DNA from: Candidatus Bathyarchaeota archaeon | GTDB lineage: Archaea; Thermoproteota; Bathyarchaeia; Bathyarchaeales; Bathyarchaeaceae | Direction of reading: 5' to 3' | Assembly: GCA_030608565.1 (NCBI GenBank) | Contig: JAUWDY010000013.1 | Coordinates: 1-40,410, forward strand | Length of the DNA: 40,410 nt | Part shown: positions 7,380-32,372 of the stretch, in pieces | Position numbering within the stretch: the stretch's first letter is position 1 | How the letters are laid out: each line of letters opens with the position of its first letter | The notes under the pieces: generated by a model | What the model was told of the DNA's origin: nothing | Seen by the model: the letters and a program-made list of their open reading frames with translations, nothing else | Databases searched by the model: none | Program-made: the position numbers and the translations under genes

Positions 7380-7506
7380 ATAGTAACAAATTGTGACTAC
7401 AGAACGTGAGTTTCCCTTTTATTCCTCTCACAACACAACTTACTATGTCGGAGGATTAACGGTGAACAACAGAATATTTGTTCCTTCAAGAATCAGAGTA
7501 ACATCA
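7380..7506 (+). repeat. 5' expression cassette, copy 1 (partner 9320-9445)
   Basis: This stretch matches 9320-9445: an imperfect palindrome with arms ATAGTAACAA (7380-7389) and TTGTGACTAC (7391-7400), a leader with the shared strings CGTGAGTTTCCCTTTTAT and CTTACTATGTCGGAGGA, a GTG start, and about 14 codons of homologous N-terminus (MNNRIFVPSR here, MNSKVSVPSR in the partner). After that the two genes have unrelated bodies. Confidence 0.8.
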
Positions 7507-7918: not shown

Positions 7919-7930
7919 TGCATGCATGCA
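7919..7930. repeat. ATGCATGC palindrome
   Basis: The 12-bp perfect palindrome TGCATGCATGCA starts 29 bases after the stop codon of the membrane protein gene and about 75 bases before the RAM-domain gene. Confidence 0.8.
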
Positions 7931-8340: not shown

Positions 8341-8350
8341 ATGCATGCAT
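8341..8350. repeat. ATGCATGC palindrome
   Basis: ATGCATGCAT lies 50 bases after the stop of the RAM-domain gene, inside a longer imperfect palindrome that begins TTACATACAT and ends ATGTAA. The rest of the 8291-8638 gap holds no ORF that can be supported, only this site and the hairpin repeat at 8453. Confidence 0.8.
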
Positions 8351-9319: not shown

Positions 9320-9340
9320 GTAGTCACAATTTGTGACTAC
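9320..9340. promoter_or_regulatory. Operator-like perfect palindrome before the bactofilin-like gene
   Basis: Two 10-base arms, GTAGTCACAA and TTGTGACTAC, around a single central T. A TATA-like element (TTCATATATGCC, 9289-9300) lies about 25-30 bases upstream, which puts the palindrome on the predicted transcription start, a classic repressor position in archaea. An 8/10-matching version stands at the same distance before the gene at 7462. It could also fold as a leader hairpin. Confidence 0.6.
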
Positions 9341-9445
9341 AAGACGTGAGTTTCCCTTTTATGTCTCGGAGTTACAGCTTACTATGTCGGAGGACTAGCA
9401 GTGAACAGCAAAGTATCTGTCCCTTCGAGAAGTAGAACAACACTA
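9320..9445 (+). repeat. 5' expression cassette, copy 2 (partner 7380-7506)
   Basis: This is the palindrome, leader, GGAGGA ribosome site, GTG start and first codons in common with the membrane-protein gene. The leader of this copy can encode an out-of-frame 21-residue peptide starting at GTG 9333. In copy 1 the matching reading (VTT.REFPFY) is in frame with the gene, so the leader seems to be kept as DNA or RNA rather than as protein. Confidence 0.8.
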
Positions 9446-10754: not shown

Positions 10755-10764
10755 ATGCATGCAT
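10755..10764. repeat. ATGCATGC palindrome at the outer edge of the left inverted repeat
   Basis: ATGCATGCAT starts 17 bases after the bactofilin-like gene's stop and ends 5 bases before the left arm of the 52-bp inverted repeat. A second palindrome follows that arm at 10831-10839. Confidence 0.85.
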
Positions 10765-10768
10765 TCGA

Positions 10769-10820
10769 GATTTGGACGTTAAGTGATGTTGAGTTTACAA
10801 GAAACGTCCACGATCTATGT
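10769..10820 (+). repeat. 52-bp inverted repeat, left arm
   Basis: This is the exact reverse complement of 12991-13042. Both arms are flanked on both sides by ATGCATGC palindromes. The arm includes an ATG and 11 further codons (MLSLQETSTIYV) that the right arm also encodes. Perfect identity over 52 bp implies a recent duplication or active conversion. Confidence 0.9.
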
Positions 10821-10866
10821 ATATTCCTTTATGCATGCACTCTATCTGTTTATCTCAACTTCATAA
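10786..10866 (+). pseudogene. Truncated 26-codon frame inside the left inverted repeat
   Basis: It starts MLSLQETSTIYV, identical to the start of the broken recombinase frame at 13028, then diverges, meets a palindrome-encoded MHA and stops after 26 residues. It looks like a 5' fragment of the gene carried by the right arm and is unlikely to be functional. Confidence 0.4.
10831..10839. repeat. ATGCATGC palindrome at the inner edge of the left inverted repeat
   Basis: ATGCATGCA lies 10 bases inside the left arm. The right arm has TGCATGCATGCAT at 12968-12980, also 10 bases inside, although the 10 bases between differ. The unit palindrome-repeat-palindrome is therefore kept on both sides. Confidence 0.8.
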
Positions 10867-11321: not shown

Positions 11322-11447
11322 ATGCATGTATACGTGAAGACCAAAGACATAGTTTACGTTCAGAGACAGTTGGGATACAAGAGCATCTCAAACACCCTCA
11401 GGTATATTGGAATCATAGACTCCGATGCAAGCATGGTTCATACATAG
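11322..11447 (+). pseudogene. C-terminal remnant of a tyrosine recombinase/integrase
   Basis: The frame from ATG 11322 to TAG 11447 reads VYVQRQLGYKSISNTLRYI, the typical C-terminal signature of archaeal XerA/phage-type tyrosine recombinases: helix, LGHKS-like turn (here LGYKS), then NTLRY with the catalytic tyrosine. Only 41 codons remain and they begin inside an ATGCATGTAT sequence 8 bases after the preceding stop codon. The rest of the enzyme, including the catalytic Arg and His boxes, is missing, so this is a fragment. Confidence 0.75.
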
Positions 11448-12744: not shown

Positions 12745-13028
12745 TTAGGCCAGAACTTTTAGGCCAGCCTTATCATAGATTCTTTTCAGTTGTTGTAGGC
12801 TTTTTCCTGTATAGTGTTTAGCTATGACAGTTCTCGAAGCTCTTCCTTGAAATATATCAACAAATCTGTCGGCATGCTGTCCAGACCAATCCAAGGAAGT
12901 GGCTTAGGTAACTCGACGTAAGATTTGTAATTCTGCTTCTTTATCCAGCGATTGAGCAAATCGATTTTGCATGCATGCATAATCGGCTTAACATAGATCG
13001 TGGACGTTTCTTGTAAACTCAACATCAC
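12745..13028 (-). pseudogene. Frameshifted archaeal tyrosine recombinase, C-terminal part
   Basis: From ATG 13028 the frame reads MLSLQETSTIYV through WIKKQNYKSYVELPKPLPW. To continue as a recombinase it must change frame near 12890, after which the sequence reads GQHADRFVDIFQGR then TVIAKHYTGKSLQQLKRIYD and ends KVLA at 12745. The DxxQGR...(A/R)HY pattern is characteristic of archaeal (SSV-type) integrases, with the tyrosine of HY as nucleophile. Uncorrected, the first frame stops at 12822. The N-terminal catalytic region is absent. The right inverted-repeat arm covers its start, and a palindrome (12968-12980) falls inside it, encoding MHAC. Confidence 0.7.
12968..12980. repeat. ATGCATGC palindrome inside the broken recombinase
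   Basis: TGCATGCATGCAT interrupts or replaces the coding sequence between the repeat-encoded start (TIYV) and the recombinase-like KIDLLNRWIKK. Confidence 0.8.
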
Positions 13029-13042
13029 TTAACGTCCAAATC
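12991..13042 (-). repeat. 52-bp inverted repeat, right arm
   Basis: Exact reverse complement of 10769-10820. Together the arms bracket about 2.2 kb containing the recombinase remnants and three or four small genes. The ends carry no obvious transposase or IS-type terminal sequence. Confidence 0.9.
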
Positions 13043-13046
13043 ACAC

Positions 13047-13056
13047 ATGCATGCAT
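13047..13056. repeat. ATGCATGC palindrome at the outer edge of the right inverted repeat
   Basis: ATGCATGCAT lies 4 bases outside the right arm, mirroring the site at 10755-10764, and 46 bases before the SIS-domain gene. Confidence 0.85.
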
Positions 13057-17005: not shown

Positions 17006-17926
17006 TTATATCCTCTTTGATAAAGCAGAGATCATAAGAGGCAGTATGGATGTCGCCTCTCCCCAAACGAGAACTTTTTCAGCTTTTTCCTTAATCTTGC
17101 CCCAAGACACTGCTTCTCTCGGTGTCGCCCCGGACAAAGAGCCATCGAGTTCAATAGCGGTAGTAAGATAAACGACGTAGTCTAGTCCTCCTCTAAACTG
17201 GTTCCACCAAATTGTGTGATGTTTGCTTATTCCCCCTCCAACTATGAAAGCTCCAGTCTTCTCAGCTTCCCAAACCCGGTCGTTCAGCAATTGCTCATCT
17301 TTGAGAACATCGATCTTGAAATCTTTGTCTTGGGAGAACATCCATAACTGGTATCCAATCATTCCATCAGTTATCCCTGGAACTATAATTGGAATTTTGT
17401 TTTTCGTAGCCCAATAGATTATCGAGTCTTTAGCTTTCAGTCTTTTCCCAAATTCCCAAATCAGCTCATAGGTCGCTAATTCTTTTTTCTCTTTGTAGAT
17501 TTCCGTTAGAAACGTTTGAACGTTTTTTTCCACTTGTTCACCATAAACCTTGTCCGGAACCAAAACGTTGCCCAATCGGCTGTAACCTTTTTTCTTTACT
17601 TCCTCATCGTTCAGTTCGAAAGAACCCTCGTAATAGTCTCCCCAGCTCCTTGCCAAATCGTGGTCTAAGGTCCCACAAGTTGTAATGACTAAATCGAACC
17701 AGTTTCGTTTCACCATTTCTCTGAAAACACCTCTTATCCCTGTAGCTACCAGACAAGCGGGAAAAGCCAGAAAATTCAGTGATTTTTCATCCTTGATCAT
17801 CCTTTCCAAGACGTTTACTGCTTTAGCTACCTTGTTCCCTTGAAAGCCACCTAGCTCTTCCATTTGCTCCAGAATTTCGTCAGAATCCCTTGATTTTCTT
17901 ATCTCGAAATCTTTCACTTTCTTCAT
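17006..17926 (-). CDS. dys: Deoxyhypusine synthase
   Basis: A 306-residue enzyme that transfers the aminobutyl group of spermidine to a lysine of translation factor aIF5A, the first step of hypusine formation. Recognisable parts are GGFQGNKVAKAVNVLERMI near the N-terminus, LVITTCGTLDHDLAR (NAD site) and the active-site segment VGGGISKHHTIWWNQFRGGLDYVVYLTTA, with the catalytic lysine in SKHH at about residue 236, then ELDGSLSGATPREAVSWGK. All key parts are present. It lies 60 bases upstream of AOR on the same strand. No clear ribosome site precedes ATG 17926. The presence of this gene is a strong archaeal marker for the window. Confidence 0.95.
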   Translation of the reverse strand: MKKVKDFEIRKSRDSDEILEQMEELGGFQGNKVAKAVNVLERMIKDEKSLNFLAFPACLVATGIRGVFREMVKRNWFDLVITTCGTLDHDLARSWGDYYEGSFELNDEEVKKKGYSRLGNVLVPDKVYGEQVEKNVQTFLTEIYKEKKELATYELIWEFGKRLKAKDSIIYWATKNKIPIIVPGITDGMIGYQLWMFSQDKDFKIDVLKDEQLLNDRVWEAEKTGAFIVGGGISKHHTIWWNQFRGGLDYVVYLTTAIELDGSLSGATPREAVSWGKIKEKAEKVLVWGEATSILPLMISALSKRI

Positions 17927-23193: not shown

Positions 23194-23202
23194 TGCATGC
23201 AT
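23194..23202. repeat. ATGCATGC-type palindrome with shared flank
   Basis: TGCATGCAT is followed by GGATTAGTTTT, matching the flank at 2074-2087. This suggests the palindrome is part of a slightly longer interspersed unit at some sites. The gap 23051-23340 holds nothing else that can be named. Confidence 0.7.
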
Positions 23203-26473: not shown

Positions 26474-26482
26474 ATGCATGCA
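26474..26482. repeat. ATGCATGC palindrome
   Basis: ATGCATGCA lies 40 bases after the stop of the small isc companion gene and 50 bases beyond the 3' end of the minus-strand zinc gene. Confidence 0.75.
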
Positions 26483-26531
26483 GTCTCTGCATCATTTTCT
26501 GTCAATGTTGCTTTCTATCAATTGACAGCTT

Positions 26532-26651
26532 TTATGGAATGGATTTCTGTCTCTTCTCTGTCATTTGCGTTAAGATGTCATCGAATCTACAGGGATCACA
26601 GAAACCATCTTTATCAGTTGCCAGTCTCTTGCCACATCTACTGCAATGCAT
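26532..26651 (-). CDS. Small zinc-knuckle protein
   Basis: A 39-residue frame from ATG 26651 with MHCSRCGKRL and GFCDPCRFD, i.e. CxxC...CxxC at 12-residue spacing, a treble-clef or ribbon zinc site, followed by a basic helix. The frame extends upstream to ATG 26729 (65 residues), but the added part is basic and not obviously conserved; neither start has a strong ribosome site. It shares the minus strand with arsM but lies beyond that gene's 3' end. No specific function. Confidence 0.5.
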   Translation of the reverse strand: MHCSRCGKRLATDKDGFCDPCRFDDILTQMTEKRQKSIP

Positions 26652-26793
26652 CTGAAGCTCTTCCCCAAGTGAGCTCTTCCCTCTTGCTGACTTCAGCAAA
26701 CGAACAATTCTCGACACTAGCATCCCCATATTCTACAATACCACAAACAGATACTTCACTATTGTGAAGGAAAGTTCCATACTTCCGATTCCT

Positions 26794-26805
26794 ATGCATG
26801 CATGC
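26794..26805. repeat. ATGCATGC palindrome
   Basis: ATGCATGCATGC ends 5 bases before the arsM stop codon position on the minus strand, i.e. directly downstream of the gene. Confidence 0.8.
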
Positions 26806-30329: not shown

Positions 30330-30337
30330 ATGCATGC
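30330..30337. repeat. ATGCATGC palindrome in the moaD-moaE gap
   Basis: ATGCATGC here is immediately followed by a 43-codon open frame (30330-30461, helical, ending in EADEINKTL) that reads like the tail of a lost gene. The rest of 30189-30472 shows only the moaD promoter. Confidence 0.7.
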
Positions 30338-30667: not shown

Positions 30668-31108
30668 CTAGCGTGGCTCTGAAACCCAGTTGGATTTTCC
30701 GCTTTCCAGATATTCTTTCTTCCAAATTGGAGCCTCCTTCTTGTAACGCTCCACAGCCTCTCTCAGAACTGGAAACACATCCGTTCTGTGAGTACCGGCC
30801 ACGACGACGTAAACTAACTCTTCAGAAACGTTAAACTCCCCGACGAAATGATGGATCTGCACATCTACTATGCCCGCCCTCTTTCGAAGCTCTTCACAAA
30901 TATCGTTAAGAACCTTGTCGGCTTTTTCCTCATACGCTTCTAGGTACAGCTTTTTTACAGCCTCACCGTGTGTGGTTTCACCTCGGACTACACCGACGAA
31001 AACTCCGAAGGCACCAGCCTTAGGAAAATCTGGTTTATTCTTAATGGATTCGAGCACATCAAAGAGCGAAAGCTCTCCTTTATTGTGGATTCCCACGTGT
31101 TTAACCAT
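30668..31108 (-). CDS. moaE: Molybdopterin synthase large subunit
   Basis: About 146 residues. GAFGVFVGVVRGETTHGEAVKKLYLEAYEEKAD is the MoaE N-terminal region, VQIHHFVGEFNVSEELVYVVVAGTHR the core, and APIWKKEYLESGKSNWV the conserved C-terminus with the catalytic lysine. With MoaD it converts precursor Z (cPMP) to molybdopterin, which the AOR in this window needs. ATG 31108 is chosen; GTG 31123 five codons upstream is possible. The truncated MoeB lies directly upstream on the same strand. Confidence 0.92.
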   Translation of the reverse strand: MVKHVGIHNKGELSLFDVLESIKNKPDFPKAGAFGVFVGVVRGETTHGEAVKKLYLEAYEEKADKVLNDICEELRKRAGIVDVQIHHFVGEFNVSEELVYVVVAGTHRTDVFPVLREAVERYKKEAPIWKKEYLESGKSNWVSEPR

Positions 31109-31159
31109 ATAGACACACCGCACTTCTATTGAACTATGTATTATTTGTAAAGCTTTATG

Positions 31160-31456
31160 TCAGCAAAAATGCATGCATGCCACTTCAGCCTTGAATCGCC
31201 CCAAATCGCTTTGCCAACATAGAACTTGACAGTTTAGATCACTTAGCTTGAATTTCCCTTTGTCTATTAGAACGATTTTTCCGGTGCCAGCAGCCGCGAG
31301 GTAGAGTGATGCAGGACATCCTAATCCACCGAGGCCAGCCACAATGACCTTTGAAGCTTTTAGCTTTCTCTGCTCCTCCAACCCCCAACCATAAATTAGC
31401 ATCTGTTTGTTATACCGCTCCAGCTCTGACGGTGACTGGCTCATTTGGAACCCCAC
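31160..31456 (-). pseudogene. MoeB/ThiF-type activating enzyme, truncated at a palindrome
   Basis: A 98-residue frame that is the N-terminal third of an E1-like enzyme: LERYNKQMLIYGWGLEEQRKL, the nucleotide-binding GLGGLGCPASLYLAAAG and LCWQSDLGRFKAEVA. Full-length MoeB is about 240-270 residues. At exactly the point where the family continues (DLGRxKAEVA), the sequence becomes ATGCATGCATGC, encodes CMHFC and stops. The adenylation aspartate region, zinc cysteines and catalytic cysteine are gone. It would have activated MoaD. Another E1 elsewhere in the genome must serve MoaD if the pathway works. Confidence 0.8.
31169..31180. repeat. ATGCATGC palindrome at the break point of MoeB
   Basis: ATGCATGCATGC stands at the junction between MoeB-like coding sequence and unrelated sequence, 9 bases before the new stop codon. 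It is the clearest case of this palindrome marking a gene break. Confidence 0.85.
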
Positions 31457-31808: not shown

Positions 31809-32372
31809 ATGTTAAAGCTGGATGATACAGACAAAAGAATTCTGTCTTTGCTTGTTGAAAACGCTGAATTGTCTCAGAGTGAAATCGCGCGTTTTCTGAA
31901 AATCTCCCAACCTGCAGTTGCCACAAGGTTACGGAAATTGAAAAAGAGAGGGATTATAACGCATCAGGTTGGAGTGAACCTGGGGAAAACCAAATTAGGA
32001 TTCGCAAAGATTGATCTTTCGACGAACAACAGCGGCAAGATTCTTAAACTTTTTGAAAAGTGCCCCTTATTCTTGAACGGGTTTGTAACGTCTGGAAAGC
32101 ACAATCTGTGCCTATTTTTGGTTAGCGAAGATCTAGCATCTCTTGATGCATGCATGGATTCCCATATCAGATCGAACCCAAATGTCTCTGATGTGGAATT
32201 TAGTGTTATCCTTTCCTCTGCAAGAGATTTTGTATCGCCGCTGAAAATGATAACAGAAAAAACGGAAGTTTCTCCATGCGGTGGACGATGCAACAAATGC
32301 TCCTATCACAAGTCTGAACGATGTCTTGGCTGCCCAAACACAATATACTATAAAGGCGCCCTATTTGGATAA
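31809..32372 (+). CDS. Lrp/AsnC regulator with C-terminal cysteine cluster
   Basis: A 187-residue protein. Residues 1-60 are the Lrp helix-turn-helix (DDTDKRILSLLVENAELSQ, FLKISQPAVATRLRKLKKRG). A divergent RAM domain follows to about 150. The last 35 residues hold CGGRCNKCSYHKSERCLGCP, five cysteines plus His, a pattern seen in DUF3795-type clusters and suited to a metal or [Fe-S] site. It ends PNTIYYKGALFG. It stands next to nfu and the Fe-S assembly genes, so a sensor of iron or Fe-S status is an attractive inference. An in-gene ATGCATGCATG at 32146 encodes DACMD and does not disturb the frame. Confidence 0.85.
   Translation: MLKLDDTDKRILSLLVENAELSQSEIARFLKISQPAVATRLRKLKKRGIITHQVGVNLGKTKLGFAKIDLSTNNSGKILKLFEKCPLFLNGFVTSGKHNLCLFLVSEDLASLDACMDSHIRSNPNVSDVEFSVILSSARDFVSPLKMITEKTEVSPCGGRCNKCSYHKSERCLGCPNTIYYKGALFG

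What the first reader, a model, noticed from the sequence alone, without database searches (positions are those of the whole stretch)
31160..31456. MoeB cut off exactly at an ATGCATGC palindrome
The E1-like frame follows the family up to DLGRxKAEVA, then turns into ATGCATGCATGC and stops 9 bases later. The same motif also stands where other coding sequences begin or end abruptly (11322 recombinase tail, 12968 inside the second recombinase, 30330 before an orphan tail). This suggests the palindrome marks junctions of deletion or recombination rather than being a passive spacer.
Basis: partly seen in the sequence, partly recalled or inferred. Interest (0 to 1): 0.7.

Follow-up and report, generated by a model that had tools for sequence, protein, structure and literature searches.

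The report
ATGC-repeat scars at archaeal DNA joints
In a group of uncultured archaea, a short self-complementary stretch of ATGC repeats sits exactly where pieces of the genome were deleted, moved or stitched together, which points to an unrecognised way of joining or shuffling DNA ends.

Summary
The moeB frame is a dead remnant, cut at residue 93 of about 245 exactly at ATGCATGCATGC, with its catalytic Arg changed. The congener G003 has a decayed copy in the same place, so this is not an assembly join.

The motif is a period-4 (ATGC)n run, mostly 9-13 bp, in every phase. It is the most over-represented 8-mer in both genomes (11-15 times) and patchy across the order.

Comparing 740 kb of G000 with 1.18 Mb of G003, synteny-block ends fall on the motif 33 times against 4.5 expected. 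Control repeats show nothing.

The motif is made at joints. One enolase-superfamily gene, intact in nine relatives, lost 173 and 791 bp in G000, each replaced by ATGCATGCA. Copied segments (TBP, HAD and zinc-ribbon genes, 66-74 bp elements) are bounded by it at both ends.

My best mechanism is Ku-independent end joining, with self-complementary tails acting as universal sticky ends. That mechanism is inferred. The main rival is a dedicated recombinase acting on motif-bounded cassettes.

The parts
31169..31180 (.). (ATGC)n junction motif ATGCATGCATGC at the 3' end of the moeB remnant
   Evidence: exact match; G003 homology on the moaE side runs up to its first base, G003 differs beyond it
31160..31456 (-). 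moeB/ThiF pseudogene remnant, N-terminal 93 of about 245 aa; NRQ catalytic Arg changed to NCQ
   Evidence: PF00899; alignment to intact relatives; congener copy has in-frame stop
30668..31123 (-). moaE (molybdopterin synthase large subunit), intact, next to the joint
   Evidence: PF02391; 95% identical in G003
30330..30337 (.). (ATGC)n motif where G003 has a 174-bp interval
   Evidence: flanks contiguous in G003 with 174 bp between them; direction of change not polarised
26474..26482 (.). (ATGC)n motif, left edge of an exchanged segment; conserved in G003
   Evidence: homology with G003 ends exactly here in both genomes
26483..26793 (.). 311-bp segment lying between two motifs; G003 has 1.8 kb of unrelated DNA between the same two motifs
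26794..26805 (.). (ATGC)n motif, right edge of the exchanged segment (ATGCATACATGC in G003)
   Evidence: homology with G003 starts exactly here
23194..23202 (.). (ATGC)n motif; 44 bp to its right shared with G003:C2:23148, left side unrelated
10755..10764 (.). (ATGC)n motif, outer edge of left copy of a 66-bp element
   Evidence: inverted repeat I1
10765..10830 (+). 66-bp hairpin-forming element, motif-bounded (copy 1); third copy in G000:C14:13099-13170
10831..10839 (.). (ATGC)n motif, inner edge of copy 1
12968..12980 (.). (ATGC)n motif, inner edge of copy 2
12981..13046 (-). 66-bp element, inverted copy 2, motif-bounded
13047..13056 (.). (ATGC)n motif, outer edge of copy 2; homology with G003:C2:16078 starts at it
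7919..7930 (.). (ATGC)n motif (TGCATGCATGCA)
8341..8350 (.). (ATGC)n motif
32146..32155 (.). (ATGC)n run inside an AsnC-like regulator ORF (31809-32372)
   Evidence: junction not tested

Best explanation
Shown: (ATGC)n runs of about 9-13 bp are junction sequences. They appear where DNA was deleted, where copied segments were inserted (one motif at each edge), and where segments were exchanged. In the best polarised case the unbroken ancestral gene lacks the motif, so the motif is made at the joint. Inferred: a Ku-independent end-joining route adds a short self-complementary (ATGC)n tail to broken ends or captured fragments. Because (ATGC)n pairs with itself, any two tailed ends anneal, are filled in and ligated, leaving one run of variable length and phase. 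Later breaks within a run re-expose the same sticky ends, so motif-bounded segments can be shuffled again like cassettes. The archaeal primase PriSL, which does terminal transfer and anneals strands over 2-4 GC pairs, is a plausible enzyme but was not tested here. The moeB truncation is read as one such deletion scar in a decaying gene.
For: Breakpoint coincidence: 33 vs 4.5+-2.0; 17 vs 2.3 in G000 and 12 vs 2.1 in G003 within 3 bp. Polarised scars: the enolase-superfamily gene at G003:C1:19341-20450 is present full-length in nine relatives (G003 included); G000:C19 keeps only residues 244-292 of its middle, and the 173 and 791 missing bp are each replaced by ATGCATGCA. A whole acyl-CoA-synthetase-like ORF of G000 is absent in G003:C14 with TGCATGCATGC in the joint. 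Two sides of one unbroken G003:C16 stretch (no motif) sit at two G000 places, each carrying its own motif. Run lengths 4-8 are at or near chance, 9-13 are about 4 to 900 times enriched, falling from 14 on, with all phases used at both ends: a short random-phase insert, not a fixed site or an open-ended microsatellite. Captured fragment: the 93-bp stretch at G003:C10:50945 matches G003:C21, which has no motif there. Ku occurs only in G013 and G015, both motif-free; no reverse transcriptase in 31 genomes. PriSL activities: PMC12019639.
Against: Three larger cassettes recur flush at both ends in two places of one genome, and the same two motifs flank different inserts in the two species. These look motif-directed rather than like random end joining. 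Most block ends (about 80%) do not lie on a motif. No enzyme was identified, and a replicative primase should be universal, so it cannot by itself explain the patchy distribution. Tailing was never observed directly. The junction analysis rests on one species pair.
Confidence: 0.5

Rival explanations
1. A dedicated recombinase or transposase uses (ATGC)n as its end or target sequence and moves motif-bounded cassettes, with loose target choice; deletion scars are sites where a cassette came in with loss of DNA and later left.
For: Cassettes flush at both ends in two genomic places: HAD gene 768 bp 99%, zinc-ribbon 300 bp 99%, TBP gene 733 bp 92%, and 66-74 bp hairpin elements. Exchange between two conserved motifs at window 26474-26805. 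Tyrosine-recombinase genes lie nearer to motifs than other non-syntenic ORFs (median 757 vs 1956 bp, p=0.012) and their number follows motif number among motif-bearing genomes (rho 0.73).
Against: No fixed phase or length of site. Scars arose in a gene that lacks the motif in its intact relatives. The nearby recombinases belong to many dissimilar types. G015 and G024 have 10-11 of them and no motif; G004 and G006 have motif and none detected. Serine recombinases are nearly absent.
Confidence: 0.3
2. The motif is a selected functional site (regulatory, chromatin, DNA-uptake or replication signal, like HIP1 or uptake sequences) in fast-changing intergenic DNA, so breaks lie near it for that reason only.
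For: About 80% of sites are in noncoding DNA, which is 16-17% of the sequence. A lineage-restricted over-represented palindrome resembles HIP1.
Against: The null already keeps sites in their coding/noncoding class, and the excess is at 0-3 bp. No fixed phase. New sites arise inside a broken gene.
Confidence: 0.1
3. Palindromic (ATGC)n runs are merely fragile microsatellites that grow by slippage and then break.
For: Tetranucleotide tandem; runs reach 18-21 bp in G012/G018; G003:C2:2598 and G000:C17:17215 share motif and left side but differ on the right, as if re-broken at the run.
Against: Lengths 5-8 show at most slight excess, and the distribution drops at 14 in G000/G003. The intact alleles have no seed repeat of 8 bp or more at the joints.
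Confidence: 0.07
4. Assembly or library artefact (linker-like sequence at chimeric joins).
For: The motif marks joins in draft metagenome assemblies; reads could not be mapped here.
Against: About 15 sites are conserved between two species with flanks several percent diverged. Degenerate, apparently decayed copies exist. Present in single-contig assemblies G001, G009 and G011. moeB flanks are in the same order in G003.
Confidence: 0.02

Closest known systems
Interstitial telomeric sequences inserted at double-strand-break sites in mammals (PMC7215372, PMC2246262)
   Same: A stereotyped short tandem repeat appears in one step at a break joint; orthologous empty loci lack it; flanking deletions are common; the scar persists as a marker
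   Different: Here the repeat is self-complementary and 9-13 bp, the host is an archaeon, no reverse transcriptase was found in 31 genomes, and joints also bound moved cassettes
HIP1 highly iterated palindromes of cyanobacteria (PMC4390886)
   Same: Lineage-restricted, strongly over-represented short palindrome; some reports of site-specific recombination at HIP1
   Different: HIP1 is a fixed 8-mer at about 1000-2000 per Mb linked to matching methyltransferases; this one has no fixed phase, is about 190 per Mb and sits at rearrangement joints
Primase-mediated microhomology end joining in Saccharolobus (PMC12019639)
   Same: Archaeal, Ku-independent, terminal transfer plus annealing over very short GC-containing overlaps
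   Different: That work reports mostly 1-2 bp indels; no ATGC repeats are described in the passages read
Integron gene cassettes / MITEs
   Same: Segments of 0.07-0.8 kb with a common short sequence at both edges, some with hairpins, some carrying one gene
   Different: No fixed core site or attC-like site common to all was seen; unrelated contents; no single recombinase; scars without cassette

Membership tests
MoeB/ThiF E1-like enzyme (the ORF itself) | Complete about 245-aa adenylating enzyme with catalytic Arg and C-terminal CPxC zinc site | tested here: not met
   Only 93 aa remain, NRQ is NCQ, C-terminal part missing: pseudogene
HIP-type highly iterated palindrome | Strong over-representation of one fixed palindromic word | tested here: not met
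   Over-represented 11-15 times, but all four phases and lengths 9-13, many not palindromic
HIP-type highly iterated palindrome | Cognate DNA methyltransferase in the genome | not tested
   not searched
Break-repair insertion scar (ITS-like) | Orthologous empty locus lacks the repeat | tested here: met
   Two joints in the enolase-superfamily gene, full-length in nine relatives; other joints rest on one pair only
Break-repair insertion scar (ITS-like) | Flanking deletion or addition at the joint | tested here: met
   173 and 791 bp lost in G000, 2170 bp difference at G003:C14
Break-repair insertion scar (ITS-like) | Telomerase or other reverse transcriptase as source | tested here: not met
   RVT_1 absent from all 31 genomes searched; a divergent enzyme missed by the model is not excluded
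Microsatellite | Continuous length distribution growing from short runs | tested here: not met
   Lengths 4-8 near chance, 9-13 enriched
Ku/LigD NHEJ | Ku gene present | tested here: not met
   PF02735 absent from motif-bearing genomes, present in motif-free G013 and G015
Transposon / cassette system | Segments with identical edges at several sites | tested here: met
   18 paralogous ends flush with motif in both copies, null 0.05
Transposon / cassette system | A cognate recombinase | tested here: inconclusive
   Tyrosine recombinases near motifs but heterogeneous

The most novel reading that the evidence does not exclude
A DNA-joining system that makes its own universal sticky ends: a short self-complementary (ATGC)n tail is put on any broken end or captured fragment, so unrelated pieces can be joined anywhere, in either orientation, and re-shuffled later at the same scars. 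It would be a major source of genome rearrangement in several families of one archaeal order.
Probability: 0.35. Interest if true: 0.92.

Novelty: new variant of a known kind. Interest (0 to 1): 0.77.

Why it matters
Most archaea lack Ku, and how they join unrelated DNA ends is an open question. Here the genome appears to keep a readable signature of many of its joints. That lets one count and polarise deletions, gene captures and duplications in an uncultured lineage, and gives a concrete sequence outcome (9-13 nt of ATGC repeat) to look for in biochemical end-joining assays. It also suggests that core genes such as TBP travel as motif-bounded cassettes. If a recombinase rather than end joining is responsible, it is a cassette system unlike integrons.

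Tried and rejected
Rfam: no hit. GCGCGC words, also enriched in G003, tested at breakpoints: not enriched. Reverse transcriptase, PolX palm and serine resolvase as drivers: absent or not tracking the motif. Viral contigs scanned for a 14-bp run: 65 scattered loci in 2.9 million contigs, nearly all with one site, no motif-rich virus. Literature search for this motif in archaea: nothing relevant.

Full report
WHAT IS THERE. Window 31160-31456 (-) encodes the first 93 residues of a MoeB/ThiF enzyme (PF00899). It runs into ATGCATGCATGC at 31169-31180 and stops 9 bases later. Intact relatives continue for another 150 residues from exactly this point (KAEVA-KEKLEALNPE...). The remnant has also changed the catalytic Arg of the NRQ motif to Cys. 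In the congener G003 the orthologous stretch (87% DNA identity) has an in-frame TAG and a different 3' junction; its moaE side matches up to the first base of the window's motif. So it is a pseudogene in both species; an assembly join or a preserved short protein is unlikely.

THE MOTIF. ATGCATGC occurs 25 times in the window against 1.2 expected. TGCATGCA occurs 332 times in the 1.76-Mb genome, while the reversed control word occurs 5 times. In 740 kb of G000 and 1.18 Mb of G003, ATGCATGC and TGCATGCA are the two most enriched 8-mers (11-15 times). About 80% of sites are in noncoding DNA, which makes up 16-17%. Maximal (ATGC)n runs of 4-8 bp are at or near chance; 9-13 bp are about 4 to 900 times enriched; the count drops from 14 bp on; all phases occur at both ends. 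In genus g10 runs reach 18-21 bp. In 189 genomes of the class the 12-mer is common in family f1 (except genera g11-g13) and f6, sporadic in f7, and practically absent elsewhere.

JUNCTIONS. I aligned G000 with G003 and asked where alignment blocks end. In G000 17 of 136 ends are within 3 bp of a site (null 2.3+-1.5, largest of 500 was 11), in G003 12 (null 2.1, largest 7). With runs >=8 and 5 bp the sum is 33 against 4.5+-2.0 (largest of 200 was 12), with sites kept in their coding class; other repeats gave nothing clear. Within each genome, paralogous copies end flush with the motif in both copies 18 times against 0.05 expected. In the window, homology with G003 breaks at or within a few bases of the motif at 13047, 23194, 26474, 26794, 30330 and 31169.

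THE MOTIF IS MADE AT THE JOINT. An enolase-superfamily gene (MR_MLE) is full-length in G003 and eight other relatives. The six loci read have no (ATGC)n run of 9 bp or more; two carry a lone CATGCATG. In G000 only residues 244-292 of its middle remain. The lost 173 and 791 bp are each replaced by ATGCATGCA. G003:C14 lacks an acyl-CoA-synthetase-like gene present in G000 and has TGCATGCATGC in the joint. One unbroken G003:C16 sequence without motif corresponds to two separate G000 places, each bearing its own motif at the broken end. A 93-bp fragment in G003:C10 begins at a motif and is 98% identical to G003:C21, where there is no motif.

THE MOTIF IS ALSO RE-USED. Segments with the motif at both edges recur in different places: a HAD hydrolase gene (99%), a zinc-ribbon gene (99%), a TBP gene (92%), and short hairpin elements. 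The latter include the inverted pair at window 10765-10830 and 12981-13046. At window 26474-26805 the same two motifs flank 311 bp here and 1.8 kb in G003. Any mechanism must explain both creation and re-use.

MECHANISM. Shown: junction status, creation at joints, cassette re-use. Inferred: self-complementary tails. (ATGC)n is complementary to itself, so two tailed ends anneal whatever their origin; phase and length are then free, as seen; and later breaks inside a run regenerate compatible ends, giving cassette exchange. The motif-bearing genomes lack Ku, and the two Ku-bearing genomes in f1 lack the motif; with two cases this is only suggestive. No reverse transcriptase was found. Archaeal primase does terminal transfer, anneals over 2-4 GC pairs and promotes end joining (PMC12019639). 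It is a candidate, not a demonstrated actor, and a replicative primase cannot explain the patchy distribution alone. The main rival is a recombinase. Tyrosine recombinases are nearer to motifs than other non-syntenic genes (p=0.012) and follow motif numbers among motif-bearing genomes (rho 0.73), but they are of many types and are abundant in some motif-free genomes too.

COMPARISON WITH KNOWN THINGS. It works most like interstitial telomeric sequences left at repaired breaks in mammals (PMC7215372) but has no telomerase-like source that I could find and is self-complementary. As an over-represented palindrome it resembles HIP1 (PMC4390886) but has no fixed phase, is rarer, and lies at rearrangement joints. 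It is not a microsatellite by length distribution and not an integron or MITE family by its lack of a fixed core and common contents.

LIMITS.

Noticed in passing
window 7381-7503 and 9321-9442; also G000:C17 about 17400-17500: A leader of about 120 bp (TAGTCACAATTTGTGACTAC...GTGAGTTTCCCTTTTATGTCTC...TTACTATGTCGGAGG) is repeated upstream of unrelated genes, 80-87% identical within the window; possibly a shared promoter or regulatory region.
   Followed up: no
G013:C4:174829 and G015:C1:319882: Ku genes occur only in two of the motif-free genomes of the family, an inverse pattern to the motif.
   Followed up: partly
G003:C1:44833-45566, C36:1600-2332, C12:36660-37301, C21:1983-2619: At least four TBP gene copies in one archaeal genome, three of them between ATGC motifs; the fourth lies just behind a tyrosine-recombinase fragment.
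   Followed up: partly
G003 sample: GCGCGCGC is also over-represented (7 times) but is not enriched at synteny breakpoints.
   Followed up: yes
G000 and G003 noncoding DNA: A separate word family around GACCCCCCTATA is strongly enriched (about 150-200 times as 10-mers, about 14 copies).
   Followed up: no
window 11326-11445 (+) and 12873-12748 (-): Two tyrosine-recombinase C-terminal fragments lie between the inverted motif-bounded 66-bp elements.
   Followed up: partly
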